IMG/VR virus record: IMGVR_UViG_3300034018_002242
Coordinates: 1-40,689 of that record
Reading direction: 5' to 3' (one strand)
Source: a virus
Length of the DNA: 40,689 nt
The position numbers were made by a program, and so were the translations under genes. The stretch's first letter is position 1. The number at the start of each line of letters is the position of its first letter. The notes under the pieces were generated by a model, which was not told where the DNA came from, searched no databases, and worked only from the letters and a program-made list of their open reading frames with translations. Positions 1,014 through 37,525 of this stretch are shown here, piece by piece.

Positions 1014-1100
1014 AAGAGGCGAATGGCTGATGGCGAATAGCCAATGGCCAAACAGCCGACTCTCTGGCCATCCGCCACACACCATCCGCCATAGGCCCTA
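1014..1100 (+). repeat. GCCATNN heptad repeat, complete copy (left arm + right arm)
   Basis: The left arm (about 1014-1051) begins right at the ligase stop codon. The right arm (about 1064-1100) ends 3 bases before the ATG at 1104. The arms are imperfect reverse complements made of 7-nt units (GATGGCN / GCCATCN), so the RNA could form a long imperfect hairpin with an approximately 12-nt loop. No Shine-Dalgarno sequence lies between the repeat and the next start. This is one of at least 13 related copies in the window. Confidence 0.85.
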
Positions 1101-1103
1101 CCC

Positions 1104-1517
1104 ATGCACTTTGAAAACTCCCCCACCGACTCCCGCACCCTGATCGCTACTGACTACTGGGACACCACCAAGGCCCAGGAGGGGAAACCCGTCGTTTCGT
1201 TCTCGGGACGCTGTTTCCGGTTGATCCTGCCGACCAAAAGCATGATCGGCCCGGAACGCTATGCCCAGCTGGCCGGAATCCTGCAACGGCCACCGTCCGG
1301 CCAGCACCCCGCGATCGATGCTGATTCTCACCGCCTGATGATTCGTACGGGGGCTCTCCTGACCGCCGTAAACTGGTCCGAGGTCTACGGCATTACCGCC
1401 GCCGATTTCCCCGCCAATCCGCAAGCCTGCGATTTTGCCGTCTACGTCTTCGCGGGCAAACGCGGCCCCCGCATGGCCTTCTGCTGCCTGGCCACCCACC
1501 AGGCCGTGCCGTTCTAA
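1104..1517 (+). CDS. Hypothetical protein
   Basis: This is a 137-residue soluble protein with no motif I recognise. It is mixed alpha/beta in character, with no signal peptide or membrane segment and two adjacent cysteines near the C-terminus (FCCLATHQ). The start follows directly on a heptad-repeat right arm ending in GGCCCTACCC, with no Shine-Dalgarno motif. The stop overlaps by 4 bases the stop of the convergent tail gene on the other strand, so the boundary between the blocks is fully packed. It is cotranscribed with the ligase if that operon reads on. The function is unknown. Confidence 0.6.
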   Translation: MHFENSPTDSRTLIATDYWDTTKAQEGKPVVSFSGRCFRLILPTKSMIGPERYAQLAGILQRPPSGQHPAIDADSHRLMIRTGALLTAVNWSEVYGITAADFPANPQACDFAVYVFAGKRGPRMAFCCLATHQAVPF

Positions 1518-2731
1518 ACCTGCACAAAGCTAAAGGCCCGAGTTTCTATATTGCTGAGTAACCATTGTGACCCGGACTTATGCGCGAGTGCGAAACAGCC
1601 TGGGGAACTCCAGCCATTAGCCCCGGAGGTTAACCCAGCCCACCAGTTGTAACCATACCCTCCAACACCGCCAAGATTACCCCAAGCGTAGCCATAACCC
1701 CACATGCCGAAAAGATGCGCACGCTGAACGGTTGTCAGTTCGGTGTAAATCTCTTTCCACTCATTATTGAGGTAGATCCAGCTGACTCGCCGGCGGCCTG
1801 GGACTGACCCAGACGGGATCTCCTCGACGGGAGTAGCATCTTCCCCTTGCTGTTCCATAAGAAAGATCGGATCACCGACCGCACTCGGGTAGGTGATCGT
1901 GTTGTAGTACCAGGTGGCAATTGACGTGACATTCGCGTGGATCCAGGAATCGCTGCCTTCATCCCAGACCGCGGCGAGAACAGAGCCGTCCGCTGGTTCT
2001 TCTTTGAGTGTCACGACCCACCGTTCCAGGTCCGCGTCCCAATCAATCGTAAAATCCGCATAGACTGGCGTCCGACTGATCCACCGAGTCGGCGGGATTG
2101 GTTGATTGACTGTAATCCACCGATCTGTTCCGGTGAATCGCGTCCGGTTGATATTCGGACTACCCGTTCCGCTCAGTGCGATCCACATGGACGGCTCGAC
2201 ATAACCCACACTCCAACCGCTATTCCCCACATCGACCAGCCAGCGAAACAATGGATAGCGCTGTTCACTGTAGCTGGCTCGGTTTCCAGACGTGTCATTG
2301 CTCGAATAAAGGTAGGCCCCCAGCCAGACTTTGACGCTACTGTCGAACCCACACGCCGCGTGAAACTCTTCCGCCGTGGCCTGGAATGGAATGTCAACAA
2401 TTCGGGCAGTTGCACCGTTTTGATACACCTGGATCGGAAATGTCTGGAGATCCTCCGCCGCGTCATTCAGGCCATACAACCCCGTAAGGTTCACGTCATA
2501 CACAATACTGTCCGTCAACTGCAGTTCAATCGCTGAGATTCTCTCATCCGTCACCGGCCGACCGATCAAGACGACCACTTTCGTCGTTTCGACGACATCC
2601 GGCAACTTCTCAAACGGTCTCTGGCTAGACGAGCGCCGAAACCCGTTCGTCACACGCCACTCGCGGACCATTGTCTGCAGGTCGCGCGCCATGTCCTCGG
2701 GGACCACGTTGAGCTTCTTGAAACCAGACAT
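1514..2731 (-). CDS. Putative tail-tip / tail fibre protein
   Basis: This 405-residue protein is the last gene of the minus-strand structural operon. The sequence is rich in Trp, Tyr, Gly and Ser and looks beta-structured. Near the C-terminus (about 345-375) there is a glycine/aromatic-rich stretch (WGYGYAWGNLGGVGGYGYNWW), of a kind often found in surface-exposed tail adhesins. There is no signal peptide or helix-rich region. Position after the tape-measure and baseplate-like genes suggests a distal tail or receptor-binding role, but I recognise no named family. It starts with ATG (MSGFKKLNVV) 8 bases after the stop of the upstream 951-residue tail gene. The role is inferred from context. Confidence 0.55.
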   Translation of the reverse strand: MSGFKKLNVVPEDMARDLQTMVREWRVTNGFRRSSSQRPFEKLPDVVETTKVVVLIGRPVTDERISAIELQLTDSIVYDVNLTGLYGLNDAAEDLQTFPIQVYQNGATARIVDIPFQATAEEFHAACGFDSSVKVWLGAYLYSSNDTSGNRASYSEQRYPLFRWLVDVGNSGWSVGYVEPSMWIALSGTGSPNINRTRFTGTDRWITVNQPIPPTRWISRTPVYADFTIDWDADLERWVVTLKEEPADGSVLAAVWDEGSDSWIHANVTSIATWYYNTITYPSAVGDPIFLMEQQGEDATPVEEIPSGSVPGRRRVSWIYLNNEWKEIYTELTTVQRAHLFGMWGYGYAWGNLGGVGGYGYNWWAGLTSGANGWSSPGCFALAHKSGSQWLLSNIETRAFSFVQV

Positions 2732-2739
2732 ATTGCCCC

Positions 2740-5595
2740 TTACTGGACGATGCGCACCGTGCCGGACACCGTCACCCCTTGCGGGAACGAATGATCACAC
2801 GAGGTCAGGTCGATCGAGGTCAGTGTCGCCCGGCCCAGCACAACCGTAGCCGTCTGAGCCACCAGATCCCCGACCACCACATCCACGTCATCCGTCCCCA
2901 GGCCCAATTCTCCGCCCCGAGCCCGGACATCGATCGAATTGCTGTTTGTTCGCAGCTGGACCGCTTGCTCCCCCGTATTCCCTCGCCCGCTGTTCCAGAC
3001 ATCCACCTGGCCCGCCAGCGTGCCCAGGTCGATGAAGCACAGCGCCGTGCCCGTCCCGGTCTCTCCCGCCCCGATTTCGACAACCGGAGATTGGCCCACC
3101 AGATACCGCGGCCGTTCCTCCCACCCGTTGCCCAGGCGACGAGAAAGGCCAATATTCCCGCTGTGACTTTTTCGCTGTTCAATCTTGTCCCAGCGTACCG
3201 TCACGGTATGGACTCCCGTTCCCGCGCTGGTCAGTTCAATCGTGGCACCCGATCGCGAGGTCGAGATCCCCATCCGGCGGCGGAAGCGGTCAATCGTCAC
3301 CACGTAGTAATCGGTCGAGGCTGACAGCGTATGCCCCGACCCGTTGAGTGTCGCCGTGCCGAATGATCCCGTCGTCGAGATCCGCACCTTTTGGCCAAGG
3401 TAGAAATCGCCGCAATCGTTGACATTCGTCCCCAGCCGCATATCCCCGGTCGAGGTCTCGGCCGTCCACGTACACCGCTGCCGCAAGGCTTCGGTCAGCG
3501 AAGACGACGAATCCATAAAGACCAGCGTGTCATCCGAGCCTGGCACACCCTGGGGCGACCAGTTCAGGGGCTCGTTGTAGTGATTCGGCCCCGTGGCTTC
3601 CTGCAGCTGTTCCAGTGAAAACAGCGTCGACTCCGACACCACCAGCAAACTCTGGTCCAGCGTCATCAACCGCGGCCCGGCCGCGTCGTAGGTCACAAAG
3701 AACGGACCACCGACAACGCCGGTGACGGTCACGCCCGTCGAGGGGATCGCCTCAATCGCCGTCTCCCAGTTCGAATTCGACCCGTTCCAGGCCACACTGC
3801 CGCCCGTTACACCGCCGACGATAGGTCGAATTGTCCCGCTGATGGCATTCGGATCGATCGTGATCTTGTCACGTTGCTGCACGCCGGGATTACCGGCCGT
3901 CACCACAAAGAGCTCGGGATCGTACCCACCCAGCAGACTGCCCACACCAAACGTCAATTGCGGCATGAACGTCGCCGCCAGGCCGTCGATGTACTCGACC
4001 AGGAACGGATCGGACGACGATCCAGACCCAGTCACGCTACAGTTCCCGCTGCCGATCGCTGCCAGGCCCCGCAAAGCCGTCTGAAACGTCGCCGCCGACA
4101 GATTCCAGGCCAGGCCACTGGTGAAGTTGGTTCCGTTGCTGGAGGCCGTGAAAGTCCCTCCATCCGCCCGGATGATCACCTGGTCAATCTGGTTCTGCAG
4201 GGGCTCACCCTCGGACACGACCTGGAACGTCCGGCCGCTCGCTGTGGTGAACGTCGGCAATGGCTGGTCGAGATTCGACTTCGACCCCTTGAACTCGACC
4301 ATATAGACGTTGCCCTTCACCCCCAGCATTGTGATGCCGACATTTCCAGAACCGGTCCCCTCTTCCCATTGCGTCACCAGTTGTGCCTGGGTGGTTGTGT
4401 AGCTATGGTTGACCGTCCAGGTCGTCACGCCCTGTGTGATCTCGTAGTCCTGTGGCTGGAGCCCCATGTTGACCTTCGCCAACAGGAATTCATTCTGGTT
4501 ATCCCCACTCTGGCGAATCGTTCTCGTGATGCAGGCCGCCGGGCTATTTACACCGGGCCACGCATTTTTCTGCTTTGAGTAATACACCGCACTGACTGGC
4601 GTTTGGGTCCCCAGATCGAGCCAGCGAATTGCAATCACGATCTCACCGCAGAAGTTTTGTGAGATCCCGGGGATGATTTGCTCGTAGGCCGCGATTGTGG
4701 TTTGAACTTTGTTTTCCCCAAGCACCTGCGCCAGCGCGGCATCTACCAACGTTTTGAAATTAGCTGGCTGTGTCGTCGCAAGATCGCAAAGCACCTCGGC
4801 ACTGGTTTTTCCATCCCGTGAGAACTTCACCTGCTGCATACGGCCGTTGTTTGGATTAGGCATAAACGGAATCGTGATCGTCTGAATACACGTCGCCGAC
4901 GCTGCCGCCAGTTGCCAGGGGTTACACGTCACCGTCGCCGTCCCCTGCAGCGCTCCGCCCTCCGCCGCCACCAGGAAGTTCATCCCGGAGAAACCACCCC
5001 CCATCGTCACTTCATACACGCGTGATTCCGTCGCCGTCCCTGGGTTCACCAGTGTTACGGTGACCCCCGTGAGCGATGTCGCAATGACTGGAACATTGTT
5101 CGCCGCATTCTCCAGCGCCGTCGCGACCGTCGATTCGCTCGCATTGTGATTCAGACCGGTCGTTGTCTCTGTCAGCACGTCCGGATAGGTCGAATCCTTG
5201 AAGGTCAACGTCCATGTCCCACCACTCGCCCCCTTGGGCAGAATGATCCGGAACTTCTGGGCGGTCGTGGAAACACCCGCGGTCATGATCTCGACGTAGC
5301 AACCAGGCGAAGAGTCACTGGCTGGCCCGAGGGCCTCCCCGGCCGTGCCATTGATCAGGAATGACTTGCCATCCGTAACGCTGGACGACACATCCAGCCC
5401 CACGTCAGATACCGCCGAGCGAAAGCGTTCGGTCAGGTCGGCAATGCTCTCACCCTGGATTCCGCCCACAGACGCCAGGATGCGATTCCAGACCTTGAGC
5501 CCGTAGCGAGCCCCGGGAATCGACGCATTGACGGTCACCCGGAAGATGTCTTCGCGCGACTCGGAATCACCTCGAAAAATGTATCTAGCCATCAC
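2740..5595 (-). CDS. Large tail protein with repeated beta domains
   Basis: This is a 951-residue protein of the tail-tip module. At least three divergent copies of one domain can be seen. Each has a 'G-G-x-[WF]-T' strand, a helix of the form 'A-x-T-[VF]-x-x-A-L', and a 'V-T-G/V-T-L' strand. They lie at about residues 125-215 (GGTWTLTFKDS), about 480-570 (GGTFTASSNG) and about 590-660 (GGSVAWNGSNS). This type of domain is common in bacterial adhesins and phage tail proteins. The N-terminal about 100 residues (MMARYIFRGDSESREDIFRV) look like a separate particle-attachment domain. It overlaps the upstream gene by 4 bases (ATGA), indicating translational coupling. A structural role is likely; the exact position in the virion is unknown. 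Confidence 0.6.
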   Translation of the reverse strand: MMARYIFRGDSESREDIFRVTVNASIPGARYGLKVWNRILASVGGIQGESIADLTERFRSAVSDVGLDVSSSVTDGKSFLINGTAGEALGPASDSSPGCYVEIMTAGVSTTAQKFRIILPKGASGGTWTLTFKDSTYPDVLTETTTGLNHNASESTVATALENAANNVPVIATSLTGVTVTLVNPGTATESRVYEVTMGGGFSGMNFLVAAEGGALQGTATVTCNPWQLAAASATCIQTITIPFMPNPNNGRMQQVKFSRDGKTSAEVLCDLATTQPANFKTLVDAALAQVLGENKVQTTIAAYEQIIPGISQNFCGEIVIAIRWLDLGTQTPVSAVYYSKQKNAWPGVNSPAACITRTIRQSGDNQNEFLLAKVNMGLQPQDYEITQGVTTWTVNHSYTTTQAQLVTQWEEGTGSGNVGITMLGVKGNVYMVEFKGSKSNLDQPLPTFTTASGRTFQVVSEGEPLQNQIDQVIIRADGGTFTASSNGTNFTSGLAWNLSAATFQTALRGLAAIGSGNCSVTGSGSSSDPFLVEYIDGLAATFMPQLTFGVGSLLGGYDPELFVVTAGNPGVQQRDKITIDPNAISGTIRPIVGGVTGGSVAWNGSNSNWETAIEAIPSTGVTVTGVVGGPFFVTYDAAGPRLMTLDQSLLVVSESTLFSLEQLQEATGPNHYNEPLNWSPQGVPGSDDTLVFMDSSSSLTEALRQRCTWTAETSTGDMRLGTNVNDCGDFYLGQKVRISTTGSFGTATLNGSGHTLSASTDYYVVTIDRFRRRMGISTSRSGATIELTSAGTGVHTVTVRWDKIEQRKSHSGNIGLSRRLGNGWEERPRYLVGQSPVVEIGAGETGTGTALCFIDLGTLAGQVDVWNSGRGNTGEQAVQLRTNSNSIDVRARGGELGLGTDDVDVVVGDLVAQTATVVLGRATLTSIDLTSCDHSFPQGVTVSGTVRIVQ

Positions 5596-6722
5596 CAGAG
5601 CCTCATTGGAGCGTAGGGCAGGAACAGTTTTGTGCGGAATTCCAGCGTGATCAGGTTTTTCGGTTCCAGCGGATCCATCAGCGGAAAGTCCCGGCGGGAG
5701 ACATTCGCCTGGTTGTATGGCGTGGCATCATCCAGCCACCGACGATAGGCCATGCCGTACTTATCCAGCGCGACCGGCTCAGTCACCTTGTCATCACCGT
5801 TGAAGACCGTCGTGATCGGTTGCAACAGCCTGGCGGGCCGCTTGTACGATTGAAAAAACATCTCTTGGATTGTTGGATCGTCGAACCGTTTCTGAACAAG
5901 ATTGTACTCCTTCTCAGTTGGCAGGGCGGCACTCGTCCCCGTGCCCCAGCAATCCTTGTCCAGCTTCCGCTCCCGATAACCCACATTCGGCCAGCGCCGC
6001 TTCCAGCCCAGCGGATTGACCAGTATGTCGAGCTCGTTCTTTCTCGCCTGGCCGTTCTTCTGCTGCACCACCCGGCAGACGGGGCGGGCGGTCATCAAGG
6101 TCCCTTCCTTGAAATACTCGCCATCGATGCGGACGCCATCCGAATTCACCACGTTGGCCCCGTACATCGACAGCCATTTCGGGCGCTCTTCGGTGAACCA
6201 GGTATAGTGAAACGCCGGGAACTCCCGTTCCTCTTCCACATCCTTGATCCAGTCCCCCGCCGTATTCCGGAACGGCGTGCCGTCGTTCGGATCGTTGTAG
6301 ACGTTGTAGCGATGGGTCCAGCTGCCCATGTCGGGCGGCACTTTGTCGGCGGGATTCTCCATCTCTTCCGCCGACCGGTAATTCAGGTCGACGTAATAGA
6401 CCCACAGTGAATCTTCGTGCTCGCGAATCGTGAAGTCACTGAGGAACAGCGGCAGCTTCACATCCATGTTCCTGGACGTTTTCAGCCGGTCGCTGTTGAA
6501 TGGATGCTCATTCGCCAGCACCAGATTGTGCTCGCCCCGCCGCGACCGATTCATGATCTCCAGCTTGCAGAGCGCAATCCAGTATTCGACATCATCCCCC
6601 GAACGGAACTGATCACTCGGCAAGGGCTCGAAAGTGACTTCCAGTTCCGTCCGACACGTCGGCTTGACCGACTCCGTGATCTCATCTTTGACCACGCCCC
6701 AATTTGCGATTTTGGCTCTCAT
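5592..6722 (-). CDS. Putative tail / baseplate structural protein
   Basis: This is a 376-residue protein immediately after the tape-measure gene, overlapping its neighbours by 4 bases on both sides (5592-5595 and 6719-6722). The sequence is hydrophilic and rich in Trp, Tyr, Arg and Asp, with no membrane segments and no motif I can name. The first gene after the tape measure in siphoviruses usually encodes the distal tail protein, so this is the positional candidate for a Dit-like component. The sequence itself does not let me confirm that. The cysteines are scattered, so no metal site is evident. Confidence 0.5.
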   Translation of the reverse strand: MRAKIANWGVVKDEITESVKPTCRTELEVTFEPLPSDQFRSGDDVEYWIALCKLEIMNRSRRGEHNLVLANEHPFNSDRLKTSRNMDVKLPLFLSDFTIREHEDSLWVYYVDLNYRSAEEMENPADKVPPDMGSWTHRYNVYNDPNDGTPFRNTAGDWIKDVEEEREFPAFHYTWFTEERPKWLSMYGANVVNSDGVRIDGEYFKEGTLMTARPVCRVVQQKNGQARKNELDILVNPLGWKRRWPNVGYRERKLDKDCWGTGTSAALPTEKEYNLVQKRFDDPTIQEMFFQSYKRPARLLQPITTVFNGDDKVTEPVALDKYGMAYRRWLDDATPYNQANVSRRDFPLMDPLEPKNLITLEFRTKLFLPYAPMRLW

Positions 6723-8965: not shown

Positions 8966-9697
8966 TCTGGTTCTCCGGATTCAAGGATTGTGGTGGAAGG
9001 TCTGGGGGACGCGGGCGATGGCTGTTTTTTCGTTTCGGCGGCACGGCTGGCGGGTCCGGGTCCTCGAAGACATCTTCAAACTTCGGGGCAGGTTGGTTCC
9101 CACCACCGAGAGAACCGACCTGCCGCATGATGCCCGCCAGCTGCAGAACCACCCGGGCCGTCTGCCGCCGCGTTTCCCGCAGATGAGCCATTGCTCGCTC
9201 GTGCAGGTCACGCAGCGTCATCTCCTCGGCATCCTCCCCTAGCTGGAGGATCCCGGCGAAGCGGTTGAAGAGTTGTCGCCAATGGCGGCGAGTATGCTGC
9301 TCAGAGCCGCTGGTTCCGTGATCTTTTCCAGCATCTGCGTCAGGAACATCCGGTACGCTTGCTGGGCGGGCGGGGACAAAAAAGCGATCACCCGGCCTTC
9401 CAGGAAATCCATCGCTTCCGCGACAGCTTCCGGTTCCCAGAGATCCTCGAAATCCACCTGGCTGAGTTTCCGCTGCTCCCACTCGGGTTGCAGCCACGCC
9501 ACGAGGATTTCCCGGCGGATCTTGGCGCTGAGATGGAAATGCTGCATCTGGTTGATGTCAGTCAGATCCATCCCCTTCAGCACTTTCCCCGCCGCATCCA
9601 TGGGAACTTGGACCAGGTCCTCAATGCGGGCCAGGTCCTTGGCCCGCAATCGTCCCGTCCACACTCCGCCCTCGGAATCCTTCAACTGTCTCAACAC
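8955..9697 (-). CDS. Tail assembly chaperone GT, made by -1 ribosomal frameshift
   Basis: The extended chaperone is read from 9697 in the G frame to the slippery heptamer T TTT TTG at 9383-9377. It then continues in the -1 frame from 9377 to the stop at 8955, giving about 247 residues (107 shared plus 140). The T part contains a helical region (ILQLGEDAEEMTLRDLHERA, RQTARVVLQLAGIMRQVG) and a proline-rich acidic/basic tail. Many tailed phages make such a fusion in small amounts; the G part coats the tape measure and the T part recruits tail-tube subunits. The -1 frame is open from 9497 onward but has no plausible independent start with a ribosome site. Overlap with the tape-measure start (8965) supports this assignment. 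Confidence 0.82.
9239..9697 (-). CDS. Tail assembly chaperone G (short form)
   Basis: This is the unshifted product, 152 residues, starting MLRQLKDSEGGVWTGRL and ending ...GDNSSTASPGSSS. It lies between the tail-tube gene and the tape-measure gene, the usual place for lambda G-like proteins. It is helical and mostly hydrophilic; a Trp/Glu-rich patch (VAWLQPEWEQRKLSQVDFEDLW) sits mid-protein. The last 45 codons overlap the T part in another frame. Family recognition rests on position, size and the shared frameshift architecture rather than on a conserved motif. Confidence 0.78.
   Translation of the reverse strand: MLRQLKDSEGGVWTGRLRAKDLARIEDLVQVPMDAAGKVLKGMDLTDINQMQHFHLSAKIRREILVAWLQPEWEQRKLSQVDFEDLWEPEAVAEAMDFLEGRVIAFLSPPAQQAYRMFLTQMLEKITEPAALSSILAAIGDNSSTASPGSSS
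9377..9383 (-). promoter_or_regulatory. Programmed -1 frameshift slippery site (T TTT TTG)
   Basis: On the minus strand the G frame reads GCT TTT TTG TCC, giving the canonical X XXY YYZ heptamer in the correct phase. Slipping back one base continues GTC CCC GCC into the T frame. The following sequence is very GC-rich, which could form a stimulatory structure. Phase was checked against the G start: 9697 to 9385 is exactly 104 codons. Confidence 0.85.
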
Positions 9698-10260: not shown

Positions 10261-10269
10261 GACTCACTC

Positions 10270-19503: not shown

Positions 19504-19540
19504 GAAGAGGCGAATGGCCTATGGCTGTTGGCCAGAGTTC
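19504..19540 (+). repeat. GCCATNN heptad repeat, left arm only
   Basis: This copy starts immediately after the cysteine peptidase stop codon with GAAGAGGCGAATGGC and ends GGCCAGAG. It matches the left arm of the complete copy at 1014. The right arm is missing here; a right arm instead appears inside the next gene at 19959-19995. Confidence 0.8.
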
Positions 19541-19558: not shown

Positions 19559-20530
19559 GTGAGACAGTTCACCCCGTTGTTGTTGCTGCTGTGTTTACCG
19601 CTGCTATGCGGTTGTGAGGCCCTGGAGGCGGGGCATGCGGCACCGGCTGGCCCGGCGCTCTGGTCGGCGGCAGATGCCCAGCAGGCGCTGGACGACTTGC
19701 GGGCAATCCGGGAACAGACCCGCTTGCTCGCGAAGATCGAGCAGCAGACGGCGGCCGCAAACGCTGCTATTGCCACGCTGAATGATCGCCAGGCCGAACT
19801 GATCGACCAGCTGCGACTGTCGAGCGACTCGACCACCAACGCGGTCGCCAAGGTCTCGACCGGCCTGACCGACCTGCAGGACGATCTGGAAGGCGTCGAG
19901 CAGAGGCTCGACAACCCCCTTTTTCCACCCGCACCCCCGCAGCCCTCTTCTCCTCCCCCTCTGGCCATCAGCCATTCGCCATCAGCCTCTTCCACCCCGC
20001 TCTGTGTGACCATCGACGGTATCGATTACGACCTCCCACAGCTGGTCGCCGACTGGTACGAATCCCCCTGGACGTGGGTCGGCAGCCAAGACGCAAACGG
20101 CTTACGAAAACATCTCGCAGAACACGGCGTCACAAACATTGACGGCCTGTCCTTCGCCACCCTGAAAAAGCTGCACGCCGCGCTACATGAGAAGGAGATC
20201 GCCGCCAATGACACTCGTCGTGTCGTGGGAGCGACCGGGGATCTCCAGTTGTTCGGCGACGTGCAGCCTAAACACAATCCGCCTGATCTGGCGGTTACCC
20301 CCCCCGACGGCAACTCTCCGGTGATTCCGGAGACTTGCCCAAACGGCCAATGCCCACTGGTCCGGTCCAGGACGGTCCAGGTCACCCGCACCGAACCGGC
20401 GGGAGCCAGCACGGTCACCAGGTCTCGCAGTGTCTCCTGCCCCGGCGGAGTCTGCCCCGCCCCTGGCGTGAGCTATCGCCAGACCTACTACCGATCGGCA
20501 CCGAGAGCCCGCGTCCGGTGGTTTCGGTAG
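19559..20530 (+). CDS. Lipoprotein with coiled coil and C-terminal domain
   Basis: This protein of about 323 residues starts from GTG at 19559, chosen because GGAGG lies 5 bases upstream. The N-terminus is a lipoprotein signal peptide (LLLLLCLPLLCGC, with lipidated Cys at the end of LCGC). Residues about 40-110 are an Ala/Gln-rich coiled coil (LDDLRAIREQTRLLAKIEQQ). A Pro-rich linker containing repeat-derived PLAISHSPSASS follows, then a domain with NGQCPLVRSRTVQVTR and CPGGVCPAPGVSYRQTYYRS, where Cys-Pro-x-Gly-x-Cys motifs recur. It could be an outer spanin-like or surface lipoprotein. A possible ATG at 19514 would only add repeat-derived residues. Confidence 0.65.
   Translation: MRQFTPLLLLLCLPLLCGCEALEAGHAAPAGPALWSAADAQQALDDLRAIREQTRLLAKIEQQTAAANAAIATLNDRQAELIDQLRLSSDSTTNAVAKVSTGLTDLQDDLEGVEQRLDNPLFPPAPPQPSSPPPLAISHSPSASSTPLCVTIDGIDYDLPQLVADWYESPWTWVGSQDANGLRKHLAEHGVTNIDGLSFATLKKLHAALHEKEIAANDTRRVVGATGDLQLFGDVQPKHNPPDLAVTPPDGNSPVIPETCPNGQCPLVRSRTVQVTRTEPAGASTVTRSRSVSCPGGVCPAPGVSYRQTYYRSAPRARVRWFR
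19959..19995 (+). repeat. GCCATNN heptad repeat, right arm, inside a coding sequence
   Basis: Within the lipoprotein gene the sequence CTCTGGCCATCAGCCATT continues as CGCCATCAGCC, a right arm of the repeat family. It is translated as part of the Pro/Ser linker without breaking the frame. Confidence 0.8.
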
Positions 20531-20613
20531 GGCTGATGGCAATTGGCTGATGGCTCATGGCCAGCAGCAGGACTCTCTGGCTATCTGCCATTCGCCACCC
20601 GCTACGAGCCTTC
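20531..20613 (+). repeat. GCCATNN heptad repeat, complete but diverged copy
   Basis: The left arm (GCTGATGGCAATTGGCTGATGG) starts at the lipoprotein stop. After a short loop (AGCAGCAGGACTCT) the right arm (CTGGCTATCTGCCATTCGCC) runs to within a few bases of the ATG at 20618. The arms are complementary and could form a hairpin in RNA. Confidence 0.8.
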
Positions 20614-22251: not shown

Positions 22252-22290
22252 TCTCCGGCCATCCGCCATTCGCCATCAGCCATAGGCCCT
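22252..22290 (+). repeat. GCCATNN heptad repeat, right arm only
   Basis: TCTCCGGCCATCCGCCATTC continues with GCCATCAGCCATAGGCCC and ends 5 bases before the ATG at 22296. Four consecutive 7-nt units are visible. No Shine-Dalgarno motif lies between the repeat and the start. Confidence 0.85.
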
Positions 22291-22295
22291 CCCCC

Positions 22296-24731: not shown

Positions 24732-25070
24732 ATGGCCCCCACCGCCAGTGAGATCTTCGACCGCGTGAAAGCGGAACGCCCCCCCGGCTGGCGACGGTTC
24801 ACCATGGACCACGCCCAGCGGGTCCAGCGATCGCTCGTGCAGGGATCCGCCGTCGGCACCCTCAACGTGCATGGCGGCCTGTTGAAGATGGCCGATCTCT
24901 CCAATGACGAACTCAGCCGACTGAGCGAGCAGGTTCGCACCAACAACGGCGCGGTCGGAGTCGGCGGTATGTTCATCTTCAGCTGGCTGGCCTGGAAACT
25001 GGTCGAGGCCGCCGTCCTATGGGCCATCAAATGGGCCTGGCGGCGACAGTGGGGATTGGATGATGGCTGA
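24732..25070 (+). CDS. Small C-terminally membrane-anchored protein
   Basis: This protein of about 112 residues starts at ATG 24732 with GAGG 6 bases upstream; a GTG at 24720 overlapping the previous stop is an alternative. The N-terminal half is soluble and basic (TASEIFDRVKAERPPGWRRF). Residues about 78-102 form a Trp-rich hydrophobic segment (VGGMFIFSWLAWKLVEAAVL) followed by basic WAWRRQW. It could be a holin-like or membrane-tail protein closing the block. The stop codon lies inside a heptad repeat. Confidence 0.55.
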   Translation: MAPTASEIFDRVKAERPPGWRRFTMDHAQRVQRSLVQGSAVGTLNVHGGLLKMADLSNDELSRLSEQVRTNNGAVGVGGMFIFSWLAWKLVEAAVLWAIKWAWRRQWGLDDG

Positions 25071-25097
25071 TGGCAATTGGCAAATGGCTCATGGCCG
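25058..25097 (+). repeat. GCCATNN heptad repeat, left arm only
   Basis: GGATGATGGCTGATGGCAAT followed by TGGCAAATGGCTCATGGCCGG overlaps the stop codon of the preceding gene. It fills the convergent gap before the minus-strand gene ending at 25116. No right arm follows. Confidence 0.8.
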
Positions 25098-25115
25098 GAT
25101 GGAAAGCAGTCAGTC

Positions 25116-28632: not shown

Positions 28633-28639
28633 TTTAAGA

Positions 28640-28721
28640 AGCAAATGGCTGATGGCAAATAGCCATTGGCCAGAAAAACACGTCTCTGGCCATCAGCCAT
28701 CCGCCACCAGCTATAGGCCCT
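28640..28721 (+). repeat. GCCATNN heptad repeat, complete copy
   Basis: The left arm (GAAGCAAATGGCTGATGGC, then AAATAGCCATTGGCCAGA) and the right arm (CTCTGGCCATCAGCCATCC, then GCCACCAGCTATAGGCCCT) are joined by a loop of about 10 bases. It begins 8 bases after the tRNA and ends 5 bases before the ATG at 28727. Confidence 0.85.
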
Positions 28722-28726
28722 CACCC

Positions 28727-29032: not shown

Positions 29033-29230
29033 ATGCTCGTTCTCTCCCGCAAAGCTGGCGAACAGATCCTGATCGGCCCCAACATCACGATTCAGATTGT
29101 CCGGCTCGGCCCGAACAGCGTGAAGATCGGCATCGAGGCCCCAAAGGAGATCCAGATTCTTCGTCCGGAATTGCAGACGGCGGATGGCAAATGGCCGATG
29201 GCCAATGGCCAGAAGAAAGGGGGCAAGTGA
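29033..29230 (+). CDS. csrA: CsrA/RsmA-family RNA-binding regulator
   Basis: This 65-residue protein matches CsrA along residues 1-46: MLVLSRKAGEQILIGPNITI followed by QIVRLGPNSVKIGIEAPKEI, including the GIEAP core and the preceding strands that form the dimer. CsrA binds GGA-containing hairpins near ribosome sites and changes translation or stability. The last about 18 residues (QTADGKWPMANGQKKGGK) are encoded by a heptad repeat and are not part of the family. AAAGGA lies 7 bases upstream of the ATG. A phage copy could redirect host translation or lifestyle control. Confidence 0.92.
   Translation: MLVLSRKAGEQILIGPNITIQIVRLGPNSVKIGIEAPKEIQILRPELQTADGKWPMANGQKKGGK
29179..29213 (+). repeat. 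GCCATNN heptad repeat, left arm, forming the csrA 3' end
   Basis: GGCGGATGGCAAATGGCCGA continues TGGCCAATGGCCAGAAG. It is read in frame as ADGKWPMANGQ. The complementary right arm lies at 29376-29428, after the next small gene. Confidence 0.85.
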
Positions 29231-29373
29231 TGGAGTACATCATTGACGGTCTGGCTTTCGTCGGCTTGATCGCCCTGGCCATCGTCGCCGCCTCACTCTT
29301 CACCCGGCCCCGCAAGCAATCGCGGCAGGACGAGGACGTGATCGGTGACTGGGTCGATCGCCTCAAGCTCTAA
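29230..29373 (+). CDS. 47-residue single-pass membrane protein
   Basis: The start overlaps the csrA stop (TGATG), so the two are coupled. The N-terminal segment MEYIIDGLAFVGLIALAIVA is a clear membrane helix. It is followed by ASLFTRPRKQSRQDEDVIGD and an amphipathic end. It is enclosed by a left-arm and a right-arm heptad repeat on its two sides. Its size and topology fit a phage micro-membrane protein; the function is unknown. Confidence 0.6.
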   Translation: MEYIIDGLAFVGLIALAIVAASLFTRPRKQSRQDEDVIGDWVDRLKL

Positions 29374-29375
29374 CC

Positions 29376-29428
29376 CCTCTGGCCATCAGCCATATGCCAT
29401 CAGCCATATGCCATCAGCCATAGGCTCT
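29376..29428 (+). repeat. GCCATNN heptad repeat, right arm with extra tandem units
   Basis: CTCTGGCCATCAGCCATATG continues with two further CCATCAGCCATATG units and ends ATAGGCTCTC, 3 bases before the ATG at 29432. The 14-nt tandem unit ATGCCATCAGCCAT is exactly repeated, showing recent expansion. Confidence 0.9.
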
Positions 29429-29431
29429 CTT

Positions 29432-30487: not shown

Positions 30488-30489
30488 CA

Positions 30490-30530
30490 CCCTCTGGCCA
30501 TCCGCCACACACCATCCGCCATCGGCCAGC
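30490..30530 (+). repeat. GCCATNN heptad repeat, right arm only
   Basis: ACCCTCTGGCCATCCGCCAC continues ACACCATCCGCCATCGGCCAG, ending 2-3 bases before the ATG at 30533. It closely matches the right arm at 1064-1100. Confidence 0.85.
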
Positions 30531-30532: not shown

Positions 30533-31060
30533 ATGAAATCCACCCCCGAAGAAGACCTGCAGATCGCCGTCATGGACTTCGCCCGTCTCAACGCAGGCTG
30601 GCAGCCCGAGCTCCTGACGCTGATCCACGTACCCAACGGCGGTTTCCGCTCGGCCCGCGAAGCCGGTCGGCTCAAGATGGCGGGCGTCAAGTCGGGAGTC
30701 TCTGACCTGCACCTGCCGCCCCGCTGGGAGTTTCGCAAGGGACTCTGGCTGGAGCTCAAGGCGGGAAAGAACAAACCCACCGACGACCAGGAGAAGTGGC
30801 TACGACTCATGGCAGACCGCGGCCAGCAAATCGCCGTCGCCCGCAGCCTGGAGGGCGCAGCATCCGTTCTCAGCTGGATCCTGGAAGATGCCCGGTTACT
30901 GAAACAGTTCCCGAACATCACCTGGACCCGCGGCCCGAACATCGCCAGCGAGAGGACCGTCCCCCGCAAAGTGCTGCACTCGCAGCTGTGCCAGGGAGCC
31001 GTGGAGATCCCGTGCAAGGATTTCGAGTCGTTCTGGCGCTGGCTGGAGAAAGCGGGATGA
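30533..31060 (+). CDS. VRR-NUC domain nuclease
   Basis: This 175-residue protein has the VRR-NUC pattern in its first about 105 residues: LTLIHVPNGGFRSAREAGRL, then KMAGVKSGVSDLHLP with the metal-binding Asp, and GLWLELKAGKNKPTDDQEKW with the ExK pair, ending in 'RGQQIAVARS'. This fold includes phage Holliday-junction and replication-fork nucleases. The C-terminal about 60 residues are an additional helical/basic region. It starts right after a heptad repeat with no Shine-Dalgarno. The likely role is DNA processing during phage replication. Confidence 0.85.
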   Translation: MKSTPEEDLQIAVMDFARLNAGWQPELLTLIHVPNGGFRSAREAGRLKMAGVKSGVSDLHLPPRWEFRKGLWLELKAGKNKPTDDQEKWLRLMADRGQQIAVARSLEGAASVLSWILEDARLLKQFPNITWTRGPNIASERTVPRKVLHSQLCQGAVEIPCKDFESFWRWLEKAG

Positions 31061-31085
31061 GGGTTGAGCGTTGAGGGTTGAGGGA
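31061..31085 (+). repeat. GGTTGAG heptad repeat
   Basis: GGGTTGAGCGTTGAGGGTTG continues with AGGGA directly after the VRR-NUC stop codon. It is three 7-nt units of a different sequence from the GCCATNN family. Confidence 0.8.
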
Positions 31086-31111
31086 CAGCACAGACACCAC
31101 ACGAGGACACC

Positions 31112-32034: not shown

Positions 32035-32039
32035 AAACC

Positions 32040-33170: not shown

Positions 33171-33202
33171 GTCCATCCCACACGACGACACTGGACACAA
33201 CC

Positions 33203-33240
33203 CTCTGGCCATAAGCCATCCGCCATCAGCCCCTGGCCCC
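33203..33240 (+). repeat. GCCATNN heptad repeat, right arm only
   Basis: CTCTGGCCATAAGCCATCCG continues CCATCAGCCCCTGGCCCC, ending 5 bases before the ATG of the replication initiator at 33246. There is no separate ribosome site. Confidence 0.85.
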
Positions 33241-33245: not shown

Positions 33246-34805
33246 ATGCCCCACCAAAAACCCCTGATCGATCTGGCCCAGCTGGACCGCAACCGCGGGG
33301 AGCAGCTGAAGGCGATTGACGGCCTGGCAGCCCGCTTGCAGCCAGGCATCGCCCGGGACGGCTATTCGGTCTCGGTTCAGGCTCTCGTGTCGCTGATGAC
33401 GAAATTCGACAGCCTGACGAGCCCCCAGCGCCCCTATACGTGGCATGGCATCGCCCACTGGTCGGGGATGACCGGCCTCAGCCCGAAACAATGCTCCCGG
33501 GCGATCAGCGTCCTGCAATCGCTCCAGTTGATCGAGGCCCGCGTGACATGGGTTTCGCACGGCAAACGGGGCATGAAGATCAAGATCAACTGGTCCACCG
33601 TCTTCGAGGCTGGCCCCATCACCCAGGACGCCGAGGACCTCGCCCTCTGGACCGCCCGCAAGACCCGGCAGCGCACACTCTTTGCCCCCCGCCGCACACC
33701 GAAACCGACACCAGTAGTGTCCGTTTCAGAAACAGACACCATGTCCGTTTCGGTAACGGACACCATGTCCGTTTCAGAAAGAGACATAGTGTCCGTTTCT
33801 TCTATATCTAATCCGCAAACTTATTCGCCCAATCATCCGCAGGGTGAGGGAGTGGGTGAGGGAAGTTTTCAGTCTTCAGTTTTCAGTGAGCAGGACACCA
33901 GCCATGAAAAAGCGATTCCCGGAGAACATGGAACACACTCGAGTCACGCTCGGCCTGCCCCCACAACCTCGCGGGGCGCTGTACGGAGCGTTTCAGATTG
34001 CCGGGATGCGAGTGATCAGTTCGGGGACGGAAGACGAACGCTGGGAGCATGTGTCCGTCAGCTGCCCAGGCCGGATACCGACGTGGGAACAGATGTGTGC
34101 GATCAAAGCCATCTTCTGGGACGACGAGGAAACGGTCATCCAGTTCCACCCGAAGAAATCGGAGTACGTGAACACAAACCCGAACTGTCTGCACCTCTGG
34201 AAAATCAAGGGCCACGACTTCGAGCTACCACCCAAGGACCGCGTTTAGATCCCATGGCATTCCAACCTGTCCCTCCCGCCGACCTGATTCAGACTCTTGT
34301 CTCGCTCAACGTGGCTGACCCGCGATCAGCTGTCAAGAAATCCTTGACAGCTGGTTACTCACTCGACCAGATCCGGGCGATCGTCGCCTGGTATCAGGCC
34401 GAGGCCATGACCGACGAGTCGGGAAAGCTGGTTTACCCCTACGACCCCGGCCAGCTGGTCCTCCGTCTCCGCGACCGGGACGCGATCGACGCCGAGCCCG
34501 CCCAGGGCAACTGGCAGGGGGGAAAGTCCGGTTTCTGGACCCGCCTGGCCCCAATTTCCACGCCCAACCCCCGAAAACAGCCCCGACAAAGCCCGCAGGG
34601 CATCTCCCCCGCCATTCCGGTCATCCGAACCACCTACACGACCGCCATGGCCGCGTCCGAGATTCTCACCGCCCTGGAGCACCACCGGGCACCTGGACCC
34701 GTCCACCAGTCATTCCACCGCTGGGCCTGTGACGGACCGATCCCCAAGACACTCGCGTTCTGGCTGAAGGCCAACGGCTACGCCGTCGAGGAGAGCCAGC
34801 AATGA
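33246..34805 (+). CDS. Replication initiator (lambda O-like) with internal origin; long fused frame
   Basis: The frame is open for 519 residues. Residues 1-155 form a winged helix domain (SLTSPQRPYTWHGIAHWSGM, TGLSPKQCSRAISVLQSLQL) as in phage replication initiators. Residues about 158-183 are 8-residue repeats (SVSETDTM) encoded by DNA iterons. The stretch at about 195-335 looks non-natural, because a conserved protein is encoded there in another frame (33904-34248). From residue 337 (ATG 34254, MAFQPVPPADL) a helical C-terminal domain runs to the end, possibly the helicase-loading part. Either one long fusion is made, or the C-terminal part is made separately from 34254. The DnaB helicase gene follows closely. 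Confidence 0.7.
   Translation: MPHQKPLIDLAQLDRNRGEQLKAIDGLAARLQPGIARDGYSVSVQALVSLMTKFDSLTSPQRPYTWHGIAHWSGMTGLSPKQCSRAISVLQSLQLIEARVTWVSHGKRGMKIKINWSTVFEAGPITQDAEDLALWTARKTRQRTLFAPRRTPKPTPVVSVSETDTMSVSVTDTMSVSERDIVSVSSISNPQTYSPNHPQGEGVGEGSFQSSVFSEQDTSHEKAIPGEHGTHSSHARPAPTTSRGAVRSVSDCRDASDQFGDGRRTLGACVRQLPRPDTDVGTDVCDQSHLLGRRGNGHPVPPEEIGVREHKPELSAPLENQGPRLRATTQGPRLDPMAFQPVPPADLIQTLVSLNVADPRSAVKKSLTAGYSLDQIRAIVAWYQAEAMTDESGKLVYPYDPGQLVLRLRDRDAIDAEPAQGNWQGGKSGFWTRLAPISTPNPRKQPRQSPQGISPAIPVIRTTYTTAMAASEILTALEHHRAPGPVHQSFHRWACDGPIPKTLAFWLKANGYAVEESQQ
33700..33836 (+). other. Probable replication origin: four iterons plus AT-rich element
   Basis: TGTCCGTTTC occurs at 33718, 33742, 33766 and 33790, exactly 24 bases apart. 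Most copies are followed by the reverse-complement half (GAAACAGACA, AACGGACA, GAAAGAGACA), giving dyad-symmetric sites. An extra half site (GAAACCGACA) lies at about 33701. An AT-rich stretch (TTCTATATCTAATCC and AACTTATTC) follows at 33798-33830, as expected for the unwinding element. The arrangement mirrors lambda ori inside gene O. Confidence 0.82.
33865..33889 (+). repeat. TTTTCAG heptad repeat
   Basis: GTTTTCAGTCTTCAGTTTTC continues AGTG. These are 7-nt units of another family, placed between the iteron origin and the inserted gene at 33904. A looser GGGTGAG-type repeat (33842-33862) precedes it. Confidence 0.75.
33904..34248 (+). CDS. DUF7694-like conserved phage protein, overprinted on the initiator frame
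   Basis: This 114-residue protein (MKKRFPENMEHTRVTLGLPP) has the pattern of a common small phage protein: YGAFQIAGMRVISSGTEDE, RWEHVSVSCPGRIPTWEQMC, FWDDEETVIQFHPKKSEYVN and CLHLWKIKGHDFELPP. It lies wholly inside the open frame of the initiator gene but in a different frame. The conserved pattern shows that this frame is the real one here. AGGA is about 9 bases upstream. Insertion into an older initiator gene is likely. The function of the family is unknown. Confidence 0.75.
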   Translation: MKKRFPENMEHTRVTLGLPPQPRGALYGAFQIAGMRVISSGTEDERWEHVSVSCPGRIPTWEQMCAIKAIFWDDEETVIQFHPKKSEYVNTNPNCLHLWKIKGHDFELPPKDRV

Positions 34806-35047
34806 GTGACCAACCCGACTCGCCAGGTTGCGACAAAGAACCCTGTCTATTCTGTGGCTACCCATTCGACACGAAATCACTCGGCAAGTACGGCTGTCCA
34901 AATTGCCACGGCGAAGGACTGCCGCCGCCGAGACACGATGGCTGGATCCACGAAGACGAATTGCCGCCCCACTATCCCTACGACCAGATGTTCCCGCAAT
35001 CACAAGTCCGCGACGGCGTCCGCATGTTCCCAGAGGTGACTCAATGA
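34802..35047 (+). CDS. Small zinc-ribbon-like protein
   Basis: This 81-residue protein has two CxxC motifs, CLFCGYPFDTKSLGKYGCPNC, with 17 residues between the first Cys pair and the second, typical of a zinc ribbon. The rest is acidic, with a His/Pro-rich middle (HDGWIHEDELPPHYPYDQMF). It overlaps the upstream stop and the DnaB start by 4 bases each, so it is translated with them. It could be a replication accessory factor such as a helicase-loading partner; no family is named. Confidence 0.65.
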   Translation: MSDQPDSPGCDKEPCLFCGYPFDTKSLGKYGCPNCHGEGLPPPRHDGWIHEDELPPHYPYDQMFPQSQVRDGVRMFPEVTQ

Positions 35048-36390
35048 GCAGTATTTTCGATCAACTGCCCCCACAAGACCTCGACGCCGAGCGATCTGTC
35101 CTGGGATCGATCCTACTCGTCAACGAAGCCTTCGACGCCATCGCCACCACCCTGGCCGTCGAATCGTTCTACTCTGACGCCCACCGTCGCATCTACGCCG
35201 CCTTCCGGGCGATGTACGAGGCCGGTTCACGCGGCATCGACGCCGTCACCTTGCGGGACGAACTGACCAAGCGGAACGAATTGGACACCGTCGGCGGCAC
35301 AACCTACATCCTGCAGATCCTGGAAACCGTGCCCCACGCCGCCCACGCCGAATACTACGCGGGCATCATCCGGGAAAAGTTTCTCCAGCGCCGTCTGATC
35401 GAAGCCGCGACCGACATCCTACGCTCGGCCTACCACCCCACCCAGCCCATCGATGAAATGCTGGCCACCGCCGAGCAACGCATCGCCGAGATCGGAGACA
35501 CCCACGTCGGGCAGGTCACCGAGATCTCCGCGGTCATGGAAGAGATCAGCCAGATCATCTGTGATCGTATCGACTCGGAAGGCAAATCGGGGGTTGGACT
35601 GCCGACCGGATTCCACGAATTGGACGACAAGCTCAACGGCCTCTGCCCGAACAATCTGATTGTGGTCGCCGCCCGCCCTGGCATGGGCAAGACCGGCCTG
35701 GCTGGGAACATCACGTCGTCACTCTGCCGTGGCAATCACCCCGGCCTGATCATCTCGCTCGAAATGTCTTCCGCCGAGATCGCGGAACGCCTTCTGTGCG
35801 AAGAGGCCAAGATCGACGGCCACAAACTCCGCACCGGCAACCTGGACGAGATCGACCACTACGAATACAGCGCTGCCAGCGCCCGCATGAGGACCTGGCC
35901 TCTGTACTTCAACGACAATGCCGACCTGACGGCCAGCGCTCTCTGTTCCATCGTCCGTCGCGAACGCCGCATCCACAAGATCGAGTATGTGATCGTCGAC
36001 TATCTGCAGCTGATCGACCCCGATGACCCCAAGGCGATCCGCGAGCAGCAGGTCTCGGCCACGATCCGCAAGCTCAAGAAGCTCGCCAAGGGCCTCAAGA
36101 TCCCGATCATCGTTCTGGCCCAGCTGAACCGCGGAGTGGAACAGCGCGACGACAAACGCCCCCGGCTGGCTGACCTGCGAGAATCAGGAGCGATCGAGCA
36201 AGACGCAGACTCCGTCCTGTTCATCCACCGCCCCGACGCCTACGACCCCGACGACCGCCCCGGCGAAGCCGACATCATCATCGCCAAGAACCGCCACGGC
36301 ACCATCGGCACCGTGACATTGTCCTGGCAGAAAAACCTGATGCGATTCCGCGACTTCAGCCCGGTGGCTGACGTCGACGGGGATTTCTGA
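35044..36390 (+). CDS. dnaB: Replicative DNA helicase DnaB
   Basis: This 448-residue hexameric 5'-3' helicase has an N-terminal domain PQDLDAERSVLGSILLVNEA (residues about 10-115), a linker, then a RecA-like domain. The latter has Walker A ARPGMGKT (about 210-217), the H1a-type SLEMSSAEIAERLL, Walker B YVIVDYLQLI (about 315-324) and motif H4 AQLNRGVEQRDDKRPRLADL. SGAIEQDADSVLFIHR carries the arginine-finger region. The length matches the family. A phage-encoded DnaB means the initiator need not recruit host helicase. Confidence 0.95.
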   Translation: MSSIFDQLPPQDLDAERSVLGSILLVNEAFDAIATTLAVESFYSDAHRRIYAAFRAMYEAGSRGIDAVTLRDELTKRNELDTVGGTTYILQILETVPHAAHAEYYAGIIREKFLQRRLIEAATDILRSAYHPTQPIDEMLATAEQRIAEIGDTHVGQVTEISAVMEEISQIICDRIDSEGKSGVGLPTGFHELDDKLNGLCPNNLIVVAARPGMGKTGLAGNITSSLCRGNHPGLIISLEMSSAEIAERLLCEEAKIDGHKLRTGNLDEIDHYEYSAASARMRTWPLYFNDNADLTASALCSIVRRERRIHKIEYVIVDYLQLIDPDDPKAIREQQVSATIRKLKKLAKGLKIPIIVLAQLNRGVEQRDDKRPRLADLRESGAIEQDADSVLFIHRPDAYDPDDRPGEADIIIAKNRHGTIGTVTLSWQKNLMRFRDFSPVADVDGDF

Positions 36391-36452
36391 AGAGGCTGAT
36401 GGCCTAGAGCCTATGGCCAGAGTGTTCAACCACCACAACCAAGGCCCATAGC
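36391..36452 (+). repeat. GCCATNN heptad repeat, left arm with a remnant right end
   Basis: AGAGGCTGATGGCCTAGAGC continues CTATGGCCAGAG (36391-36422), starting at the DnaB stop. A short AAGGCCCATAGC immediately precedes the ATG at 36453, matching the 'ATAGGCCC' end of right arms in changed order. The middle is unrelated. Confidence 0.7.
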
Positions 36453-36708: not shown

Positions 36709-36945
36709 ATGCAAACCCAACAGGACATAAGGCACTGGCTCGCGATGCACTGCTCGGAACCACAGGCCAACTTCATCTACAACAGACTCGAGGAGAAATG
36801 GCACAACGAGGCAGCCCGCGCGAGGCATGGATTGACCGAGCCACCGACGATGGCCCTCTGCCGATACGTCTGGGCCGACATGATGCTCGCCACCGGAAAG
36901 ATCCCAACTCAACCCTACCTCTCCGCCCTTAACGACCAAACGTAA
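36709..36945 (+). CDS. Hypothetical protein
   Basis: This 78-residue protein starts MQTQQDIRHWLAMHCSEPQA with AAGGA 6 bases upstream. It is helical and includes a Trp/Arg-rich stretch (YNRLEEKWHNEAARARHG). The last plus-strand gene, it ends 3 bases before the stop of the convergent nuclease gene. No family is recognised. Confidence 0.55.
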   Translation: MQTQQDIRHWLAMHCSEPQANFIYNRLEEKWHNEAARARHGLTEPPTMALCRYVWADMMLATGKIPTQPYLSALNDQT

Positions 36946-36948
36946 TTC

Positions 36949-37467
36949 CTACTTTGCCGACTTCGCCTGACCCGCGGCCACCTGTCTGGCAGAGAGATCC
37001 TGGCCATTGACCCACACGCGGCCCAGGACACGGCCCAGGGTAAACAGGTCATCTGACCGTTCGACACCCGCCAGCGAGATTTCCAGCTGGCCCTTCGTCC
37101 CCGGCGGAGCCATCCGCTGGATCGAATTCAGCGAGTCAATCCCCCGCTGTTTCTCCGCGGCGATCCGCTCAAGGATTTCGCGCTGCTTTTCGCCGGGCAG
37201 TTTCCTTTCCGCTTCGGTCAGCCGTCGCCCCGTCAATTCCGGGGCCCAGCAATCAGAAAGTCTCACACGGAGATCGGCAACGATCCGCACAGTGCCAGTG
37301 TCCCCATCATGCCACGAAACAATTTCGCACGGCACAACCAGCTTAGGATCCGGCGGCACATCCCCCGCCTCTGCATGAGGAAAATATGCCCACTGCAGCA
37401 ACCTCGCGACACAAAGCACCAAAACAAACGAACACAGATCCAGGTTAAACTTCATCAACCGAGTCAT
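36949..37467 (-). CDS. SNase-like (thermonuclease) protein with signal anchor
   Basis: This 172-residue protein starts at ATG 37467 (MTRLMKFNLDLCSFVLVLCV), a hydrophobic signal or anchor. The nuclease core follows: IVSWHDGDTGTVRI (Asp56 as metal ligand), VRLSDCWAPEL (Arg69 and Glu77) and FTLGRVLGRVWVNGQ (Arg146). Where staphylococcal nuclease has a second metal Asp, this protein has Trp74, so metal binding may differ. It is presumably exported and could degrade host or competing DNA outside the cytoplasm, or act at the envelope. It lies downstream of the terminase genes. Confidence 0.8.
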   Translation of the reverse strand: MTRLMKFNLDLCSFVLVLCVARLLQWAYFPHAEAGDVPPDPKLVVPCEIVSWHDGDTGTVRIVADLRVRLSDCWAPELTGRRLTEAERKLPGEKQREILERIAAEKQRGIDSLNSIQRMAPPGTKGQLEISLAGVERSDDLFTLGRVLGRVWVNGQDLSARQVAAGQAKSAK

Positions 37468-37484
37468 CGCCAACCCTCCCTGCC

Positions 37485-37525
37485 CCTCTGGCCATCCGCT
37501 ATCCGCCACAAGCCATCCGCCTCTT
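37485..37525 (-). repeat. GCCATNN heptad repeat, left arm in minus-strand orientation
   Basis: Read on the minus strand it is GAGGCGGATGGCTTGTGGCG then GATAGCGGATGGCCAGAGG. It starts right after the stop codon at 37526 and lies between two minus-strand genes. It is the only copy oriented this way, matching the direction of transcription. Confidence 0.8.

What the first reader, a model, noticed from the sequence alone, without database searches (positions are those of the whole stretch)
1014..37525. A dispersed GCCATNN heptad-repeat family with left and right arms placed at gene boundaries
At least 13 full or half copies (near 1014, 19504, 19959, 20531, 22252, 25058, 28640, 29179, 29376, 30490, 33203, 36391, 37485) are built from 7-nt units. 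Left arms start at or within a few codons of stop codons, and right arms end 2-5 bases before an ATG. Left and right arms are reverse complements and occur either together with a loop of about 12 bases (hairpin) or apart with a gene or gene segment between. All follow the direction of transcription. None occurs in the structural operon 1514-16733. This looks like a boundary element enabling gene-cassette gain in a phage, or a regulatory leader. Heptanucleotide repeats (STRR) are known in some bacteria, but this paired-arm, start-adjacent use in a phage is striking.
Basis: partly seen in the sequence, partly recalled or inferred. Interest (0 to 1): 0.78.

Follow-up and report, generated by a model that had tools for sequence, protein, structure and literature searches.

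The report
Seven-base-repeat hairpins between phage genes
A virus of planctomycete bacteria has many of its gene boundaries filled by hairpins whose arms are made of loosely repeated 7-base units; such boundary repeats are known from a few bacterial chromosomes, but in these viruses they are packed some 20 to 50 times more densely, and each virus lineage uses its own set of 7-base words.

Summary
Heptad arms (GCCATNN / NNATGGC) occur at all 13 listed places (chance: 0-2 hits per strand). Three are full hairpins, two are pairs split by DNA in the loop, the rest are single arms. Left arms start at stop codons, right arms end 10-19 nt before starts, and none lies in the structural operon. The window is a temperate siphophage. 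The same repeat occurs in one planctomycete genus, whose base usage matches best: the likely host. More broadly, planctomycete chromosomes carry heptad arrays of many words, and some phages are packed with them: a prophage in a complete genome has them at nearly every gene gap (26 in 20 kb, about 20 times its host's density). A syntenic virus keeps the same core genes with other words or no repeat, so arms are not simply borders of gained genes. Yet the hairpin centre looks prone to insertion and breakage: DNA in two loops, nested hairpins, an IS inside an array, and synteny lost exactly at an arm in 2 of 10 ortholog pairs. The placement rule equals that published for Xanthomonas and Nostoc heptads (PMC4692102). 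New variant of a known kind; function unproven.

The parts
1014..1103 (+). full heptad hairpin between the stop of the ligase gene (1013) and the ATG at 1104
   Evidence: fold z -4.0
20531..20612 (+). full heptad hairpin between the stop at 20530 and the ATG at 20618
   Evidence: fold z -3.9
28637..28722 (+). full heptad hairpin between tRNA-Met (28559-28632) and the ATG at 28727
   Evidence: fold z -4.6
19504..19540 (+). left arm directly after the stop at 19503; partner of 19957-19993, with gene DNA in the loop
   Evidence: most complementary to its own partner of 9 right arms
19957..19993 (+). right arm, in frame inside the ORF 19559-20530 (lipoprotein-like N-terminus upstream of it)
29177..29213 (+). 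left arm in the last codons of an ORF; partner of 29375-29429, with a 47-residue membrane-protein gene (about 29230-29373) in the loop
29375..29429 (+). right arm of six units before the ATG at 29432
22252..22292 (+). single right arm filling the gap between the stop at 22251 and the ATG at 22296
30489..30527 (+). single right arm before the ATG at 30533; shares 31 identical bases with the right arm at 1062
33202..33240 (+). single right arm before the ATG at 33246
25054..25098 (+). single left arm overlapping the stop at 25068-25070
36391..36428 (+). single left arm directly after the stop of the DnaB-like helicase gene (36390)
37484..37522 (-). single left arm, read on the minus strand, after the minus-strand stop at 37526
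31047..31087 (+). heptad array of another word (GGGTTGA) at the stop at 31060
33864..33893 (+). heptad array of another word (AGTTTTC) inside the ORF 33246-34805

Best explanation
The arms are copies of a palindromic intergenic repeat whose stem is made of degenerate 7-nt units: left outer box GGAAGAGGC, units NNATGGC, inner box CCAGAG, loop, inner box CTCTGG, units GCCATNN, right outer box GCCTCTTCC or a pyrimidine-rich variant. It belongs to a broader class in planctomycetes in which the 7-nt word differs between loci and lineages while the 7-nt period, an inner CAGA..TCTG motif and the stop/start placement stay the same. The phage shares the word of its probable host genus and carries it far more densely. 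How it works: (a) shown in silico: the transcribed full copies can fold with the upstream stop (or tRNA end) at one foot and the start codon near the other; (b) shown by comparison: copies persist at the same sites between species, change mainly at the two free positions, and one pair differs by exactly two units; (c) supported by single cases: DNA enters or breaks at the centre of the palindrome (genes in loops, nested hairpins, synteny lost at the inner edge); (d) inferred: copies arise by 7-nt slippage plus copying between loci and are tolerated in the few non-coding bases between phage genes; (e) inferred, weakest: in phage mRNA they are spacer hairpins whose closure keeps stop and start close, so that linked translation survives the insertion.
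For: Arms and boxes in the window; folds; same element in three genomes of one planctomycete genus and best match of tetranucleotide usage with it; heptad-specific excess of arrays in G299, 66 at lag 7 against 0-14 at non-multiples; inner CAGA 46 against 11 outer over 168 arrays; G-rich arrays start at the stop in 22 of 38 cases (6.2 expected), C-rich arrays end near the start in 25 of 39 (10.5 expected); heptad-packed prophage L340 and viral contigs; word turnover against synteny in L340/L345; orthologous copies and 14-nt indel; IS in an array.
Against: Arms of the short hairpins are not more complementary to each other than to other arms (ranks 6-8 of 9), so pairing is not visibly maintained by selection. 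Single arms cannot form the hairpin. One full copy follows a tRNA, where stop-start bridging has no meaning. No copying enzyme was found. No close relative of the window phage was available.
Confidence: 0.6

Rival explanations
1. Gene-cassette boundary: left and right arms are recombination ends that bring whole genes into the phage.
For: Gene DNA between well-matched arms at 19504-19993 and 29177-29429; synteny breaks at the inner edge of the right arm in 2 of 10 ortholog pairs; IS inside an array.
Against: In L340 arms flank core structural genes and L345 has those genes without them; most arms bound no recognisable cassette; words differ between neighbouring gaps, so there is no common site for one recombinase; two of the cases come from draft assemblies.
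Confidence: 0.15
2. REP- or MITE-like palindromes moved by a transposase (for example a Y1/RAYT enzyme) into gene gaps.
For: Nearly identical right arms at 1062 and 30490 (31 bases) show copying between loci; dispersed palindromes; the G001 side of one synteny break carries a Y1-transposase-like fragment (identified by eye).
Against: 15 of 16 Y1_Tnp loci in G001, G357, G321 and G299 have no heptad array within about 1.5 kb; most copies share only GCCAT and the boxes; sites are stable between species; no target duplication seen.
Confidence: 0.12
3. Regulatory leader: the right arm is an RNA- or DNA-protein binding site that controls the gene behind it, as proposed for TAACTGA repeats.
For: Right arms end 10-19 nt before the start; 0 of 7 such genes in the window have a Shine-Dalgarno-like motif against 31 of 50 others.
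Against: Over six phage pieces the Shine-Dalgarno difference is not significant (14 of 37 against 47 of 86, p 0.12); in L345 a Shine-Dalgarno motif lies between arm and start; words differ from gene to gene in one phage; left arms have no place in this model.
Confidence: 0.08
4. G-quadruplex elements, as proposed for Xanthomonas heptads.
For: Same period, pairing and stop/start polarity (PMC4692102); some words here contain GGG (GGGGATC, CGGGNTT).
Against: The window word ATGGCNN and words such as TTGAGNG, TTGATNG and TTTTGGA lack GGG runs but follow the same placement.
Confidence: 0.04

Closest known systems
Heptameric GGGANTN repeats of Xanthomonas and GGGGA(C/T)T of Nostoc (Rehm et al. 2015, PMC4692102)
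   Same: Degenerate 7-nt units, usually about four; frequent convergent pairs forming inverted repeats; G-rich strand sense within 50 bp after the stop, antisense within 50 bp before the start; stable sites with changing units.
   Different: Chromosomal, one word family per organism, GGG tracts. Here: phage genomes, many words (several without GGG), inner CAGA motif, chimeric and nested hairpins.
TAACTGA heptamers of Beggiatoaceae (MacGregor 2015, PMC4679880)
   Different: Exact direct repeats, hardly ever inverted; one word; not reported in phages there.
STRR heptanucleotide repeats of cyanobacteria (from memory, and as cited in PMC4679880 and PMC4692102)
   Same: Dispersed, degenerate 7-nt tandem repeats in intergenic DNA.
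   Different: The paired arms at stop and start were not tested against cyanobacterial sequence here.
REP elements and RAYT transposases (PMC3733652)
   Same: Dispersed intergenic stem-loops; known also in Planctomycetes.
   Different: REPs are 20-40 bp with fixed sequence and GTAG or CGTC tags; no link of the heptads to Y1 transposase genes was found.

Membership tests
Intergenic heptameric repeats (Xanthomonas/Nostoc kind) | tandem units of 7 nt with fixed and free positions | tested here: met
   GCCAT fixed, NN free
Intergenic heptameric repeats (Xanthomonas/Nostoc kind) | G-rich strand sense after stops, antisense before starts | tested here: met
Intergenic heptameric repeats (Xanthomonas/Nostoc kind) | convergent pairs forming inverted repeats | tested here: met
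   three full hairpins
Intergenic heptameric repeats (Xanthomonas/Nostoc kind) | GGG tracts able to form G-quadruplexes | tested here: not met
   ATGGCNN has only GG; true also of several other words
REP/RAYT | Y1 transposase gene flanked by the repeat | tested here: not met
   15 of 16 Y1_Tnp loci without heptads
REP/RAYT | conserved GTAG or CGTC tag at one end | tested here: not met
   arm boxes are GGAAGAGGC, CCAGAG/CTCTGG, GCCTCTTCC
Gene-cassette recombination site (attC-like) | genes gained together with the site | tested here: inconclusive
   against: L340/L345 core genes; for: DNA in two loops, two synteny breaks
Gene-cassette recombination site (attC-like) | dedicated recombinase acting on the site | not tested
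   the window has one phage integrase (25778-27022); no arm lies directly beside it, and its site was not determined
Intrinsic terminator | hairpin followed by a run of T | tested here: not met
   right arms are followed by C-rich sequence and ATG

The most novel reading that the evidence does not exclude
Heptad hairpins are a general building principle of planctomycete phage genomes: new DNA is added at the centre of the hairpin, whose closure keeps the neighbouring stop and start codons together, so that phages can take up genes without breaking their operons.
Probability: 0.18. Interest if true: 0.82.

Novelty: new variant of a known kind. Interest (0 to 1): 0.52.

Why it matters
Heptad repeats have been noticed in bacterial chromosomes for decades without an agreed cause or function. 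Finding them in phages some 20-50 times denser than in hosts, with many different words obeying one placement rule, separates what seems essential (7-nt period, arm polarity, stop/start position) from what is not (the word, quadruplex potential). Phages are small, so the question of why 7 nt and what the repeats do becomes testable. The words may also help assign such phages to host genera.

Tried and rejected
Rfam: only the tRNA. Close relatives of the window phage by capsid, helicase and terminase in viral contigs: none; no useful DNA match in 50,697 phage records; portal relatives in 170 genomes of the host family: two distant hits. Global period-7 autocorrelation over crude intergenic masks gave nothing, because spurious ORFs cover the repeats. 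Quadruplex, RAYT/REP, terminator and pure cassette readings were rejected as the main account for the reasons given. Perfect GCCATYN arrays in L016 and L122 are simple tandem repeats without the palindrome and were set aside.

Full report
What is there. The window is an IMG/VR virus record of 40,689 bases: a temperate siphophage with tape measure, capsid, protease, portal and terminase genes on the minus strand and an integrase. None lies in the structural operon. The arms share boxes: most left arms begin (G)GAAGAGGC or a close variant and end GGCCA(GAG); right arms begin (CTC)TGGCC and end in GCCTCTTCC or a pyrimidine-rich variant such as GGCCCTACCC, directly before ATG. Three copies are full hairpins with fold z-scores of -3.9 to -4.6, while single arms fold like shuffled sequence. 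In the three folds the GCCAT/ATGGC cores pair (90 of 108 bases) and the two free positions mostly do not (13 of 44).

Copying and loops. The right arms at 1062 and 30490 share 31 identical bases including an unusual unit, so copies move between loci in this genome. In the three short hairpins the left arm fits its own right arm no better than other right arms (ranks 6-8 of 9). In the two places where DNA lies between the arms the fit to the own partner is best (19504/19959) or second best (29179/29376). I read these two as elements whose loop received DNA: a lipoprotein-like N-terminal segment that now reads through the right arm into the next domain, and a 47-residue membrane protein. With five pairs this is suggestive only.

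Host. A scan of GTDB genomes with CCTCTGGCCATNNGCCATNNGCCA gave two loci, one in a planctomycete MAG, RH-20APR16-plancto4, a freshwater lineage mentioned in PMC6461901. That genome (G001) and the two other held genomes of its genus (G357, G321) carry the element; G001 and G357 have full hairpins, and right arms directly before ATG occur in them. In 296 genomes drawn across the phylum, matches outside G001 are at most two per genome. The window's tetranucleotide usage correlates best with that genus (0.74-0.77; other planctomycetes 0.64-0.70). Its helicase is 51-57% identical to proteins of G357 and G321. The genus, or a close neighbour, is the likely host; this is inference. The density of the word is 39 per 100 kb in the window against 0.6-1.6 in the genus.

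A wider class. Other 7-nt words behave the same way in these genomes. In 520 kb of the complete planctomycete genome G299, arrays with self-match at lag 7 number 66, against 0-14 at lags 4-6, 8-13 and 15; lag 14, the double of 7, gives 43. Whatever the word, the inner end of the G-rich arm tends to carry CAGA: 46 inner against 11 outer sides over 168 arrays, with the reverse-complement control at 3 against 3. Some hairpins have different words in their two arms. Of the 66 arrays 26 lie in one 20-kb stretch (L340), which is a prophage (terminase, portal, capsid, tape measure): 130 per 100 kb, against about 6.5 in the sample outside L339 and L340. Viral contigs L347 and L351/L370 are similarly packed, whereas 113 other viral contigs (1 Mb) have six arrays. 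The L340 words match those of its own host.

Placement. Over seven phage pieces, G-rich arrays start within 10 nt of the upstream stop in 22 of 38 cases (6.2 expected under uniform placement in the gap), and C-rich arrays end within 20 nt of the downstream start in 25 of 39 (10.5 expected); none of 5,000 simulations reached either value. Gene calls are from my own codon-usage model, not a published caller. Insertion of hairpins into gaps that were originally only a few bases long would give this pattern without any function, and this is the simplest account.

Test of gene gain. L345, a virus syntenic with the G299 prophage (about 30-77% protein identity), has heptads in some of the same gaps but with other words; in others it has compact or overlapping junctions or Shine-Dalgarno motifs instead. 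The same core genes therefore exist with and without arms. In the host genus ten orthologous loci of G001 and G357 could be compared (five of them had been found because both species matched the pattern). Arms are present in both species at nine; at the tenth, inside a leucyl-tRNA-synthetase-like gene, the two species have different sequence at the site. Differences fall mainly at the free positions, one pair differs by exactly 14 nt, and in two pairs (L212/L199, L197/L400) synteny ends at the inner edge of the right arm. In one of those the G001 side carries what looks like the C-terminal part of a Y1-type transposase (by eye). In L340 an IS-like insert with terminal repeats AAATCACCGGCCACGA sits inside a heptad array. 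L345 shows two hairpins nested one in the other (by eye). The centre of the palindrome is thus a plausible hot spot for insertion and breakage, but assembly error at repeats cannot be excluded for the synteny breaks.

Translation. In the window 0 of 7 genes with a right arm have a Shine-Dalgarno-like motif, against 31 of 50 others (counts; hypergeometric p about 0.0025, my arithmetic). Over six phage pieces the difference is not significant (p 0.12), and L345 keeps Shine-Dalgarno motifs between arm and start. A role of the arm in initiation is therefore possible in some phages but not general. Gaps with arms fold somewhat better than gaps without (mean z -2.99 against -1.58, p 0.03).

Known relatives. 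Rehm et al. 2015 (PMC4692102) describe heterogeneous heptads in Xanthomonas and Nostoc with the same pairing and the same stop/start polarity, stable sites, and left the function open. MacGregor 2015 (PMC4679880) describes TAACTGA heptads before start codons. The kind is therefore known. Phage genomes packed with it, the many words, the inner motif and the nesting were not found described in the open library searched, which does not prove that they are undescribed. Words without GGG obey the same rule, so quadruplex formation cannot be the common cause.

Limits. No close relative of the window phage was found, so gene gain in this phage could not be tested directly. Control viral contigs were fetched with a GCCAT pattern and are biased towards that word. 

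Noticed in passing
L340:11036-12224 (G299 prophage): IS-like insert with terminal repeats AAATCACCGGCCACGA inside a heptad array; its ORF matches PHROG 17381 and weakly a transposase family.
   Followed up: partly
L340 gene gaps, e.g. 2200-2330, 3820-4010, 6140-6320: Other dispersed palindromes share the gaps, e.g. GGCAGGCGGGAGCCTGCCCTACG, CGTTCCCAGGC(A/T)...GCCTGGGAACG and a block AATTATGAATTCCGCGCAACAAACTCCC that also occurs in the G299 chromosome.
   Followed up: no
L345:4880-5010 and 10610-10730: Repeats of the type GTGCCACTGGC...GCCAGTGGCACACG fill gaps of this virus where its relative L340 has heptads.
   Followed up: no
window 16744-16776: Perfect 17-nt direct repeat TTGCCATTTCTGTCACA at the divergent junction between the structural operon and the rightward genes; a possible operator.
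   Followed up: no
window 132-1013: Gene for an ATP-dependent DNA ligase-like protein (PF01068).
   Followed up: no
window 23342-23687: Two copies of a 168-nt unit in the gene 22652-24004, which matches the phage tail repeat family PTR.
   Followed up: no
window 35044-36390: DnaB-type helicase, 51-57% identical to proteins of the probable host genus.
   Followed up: partly
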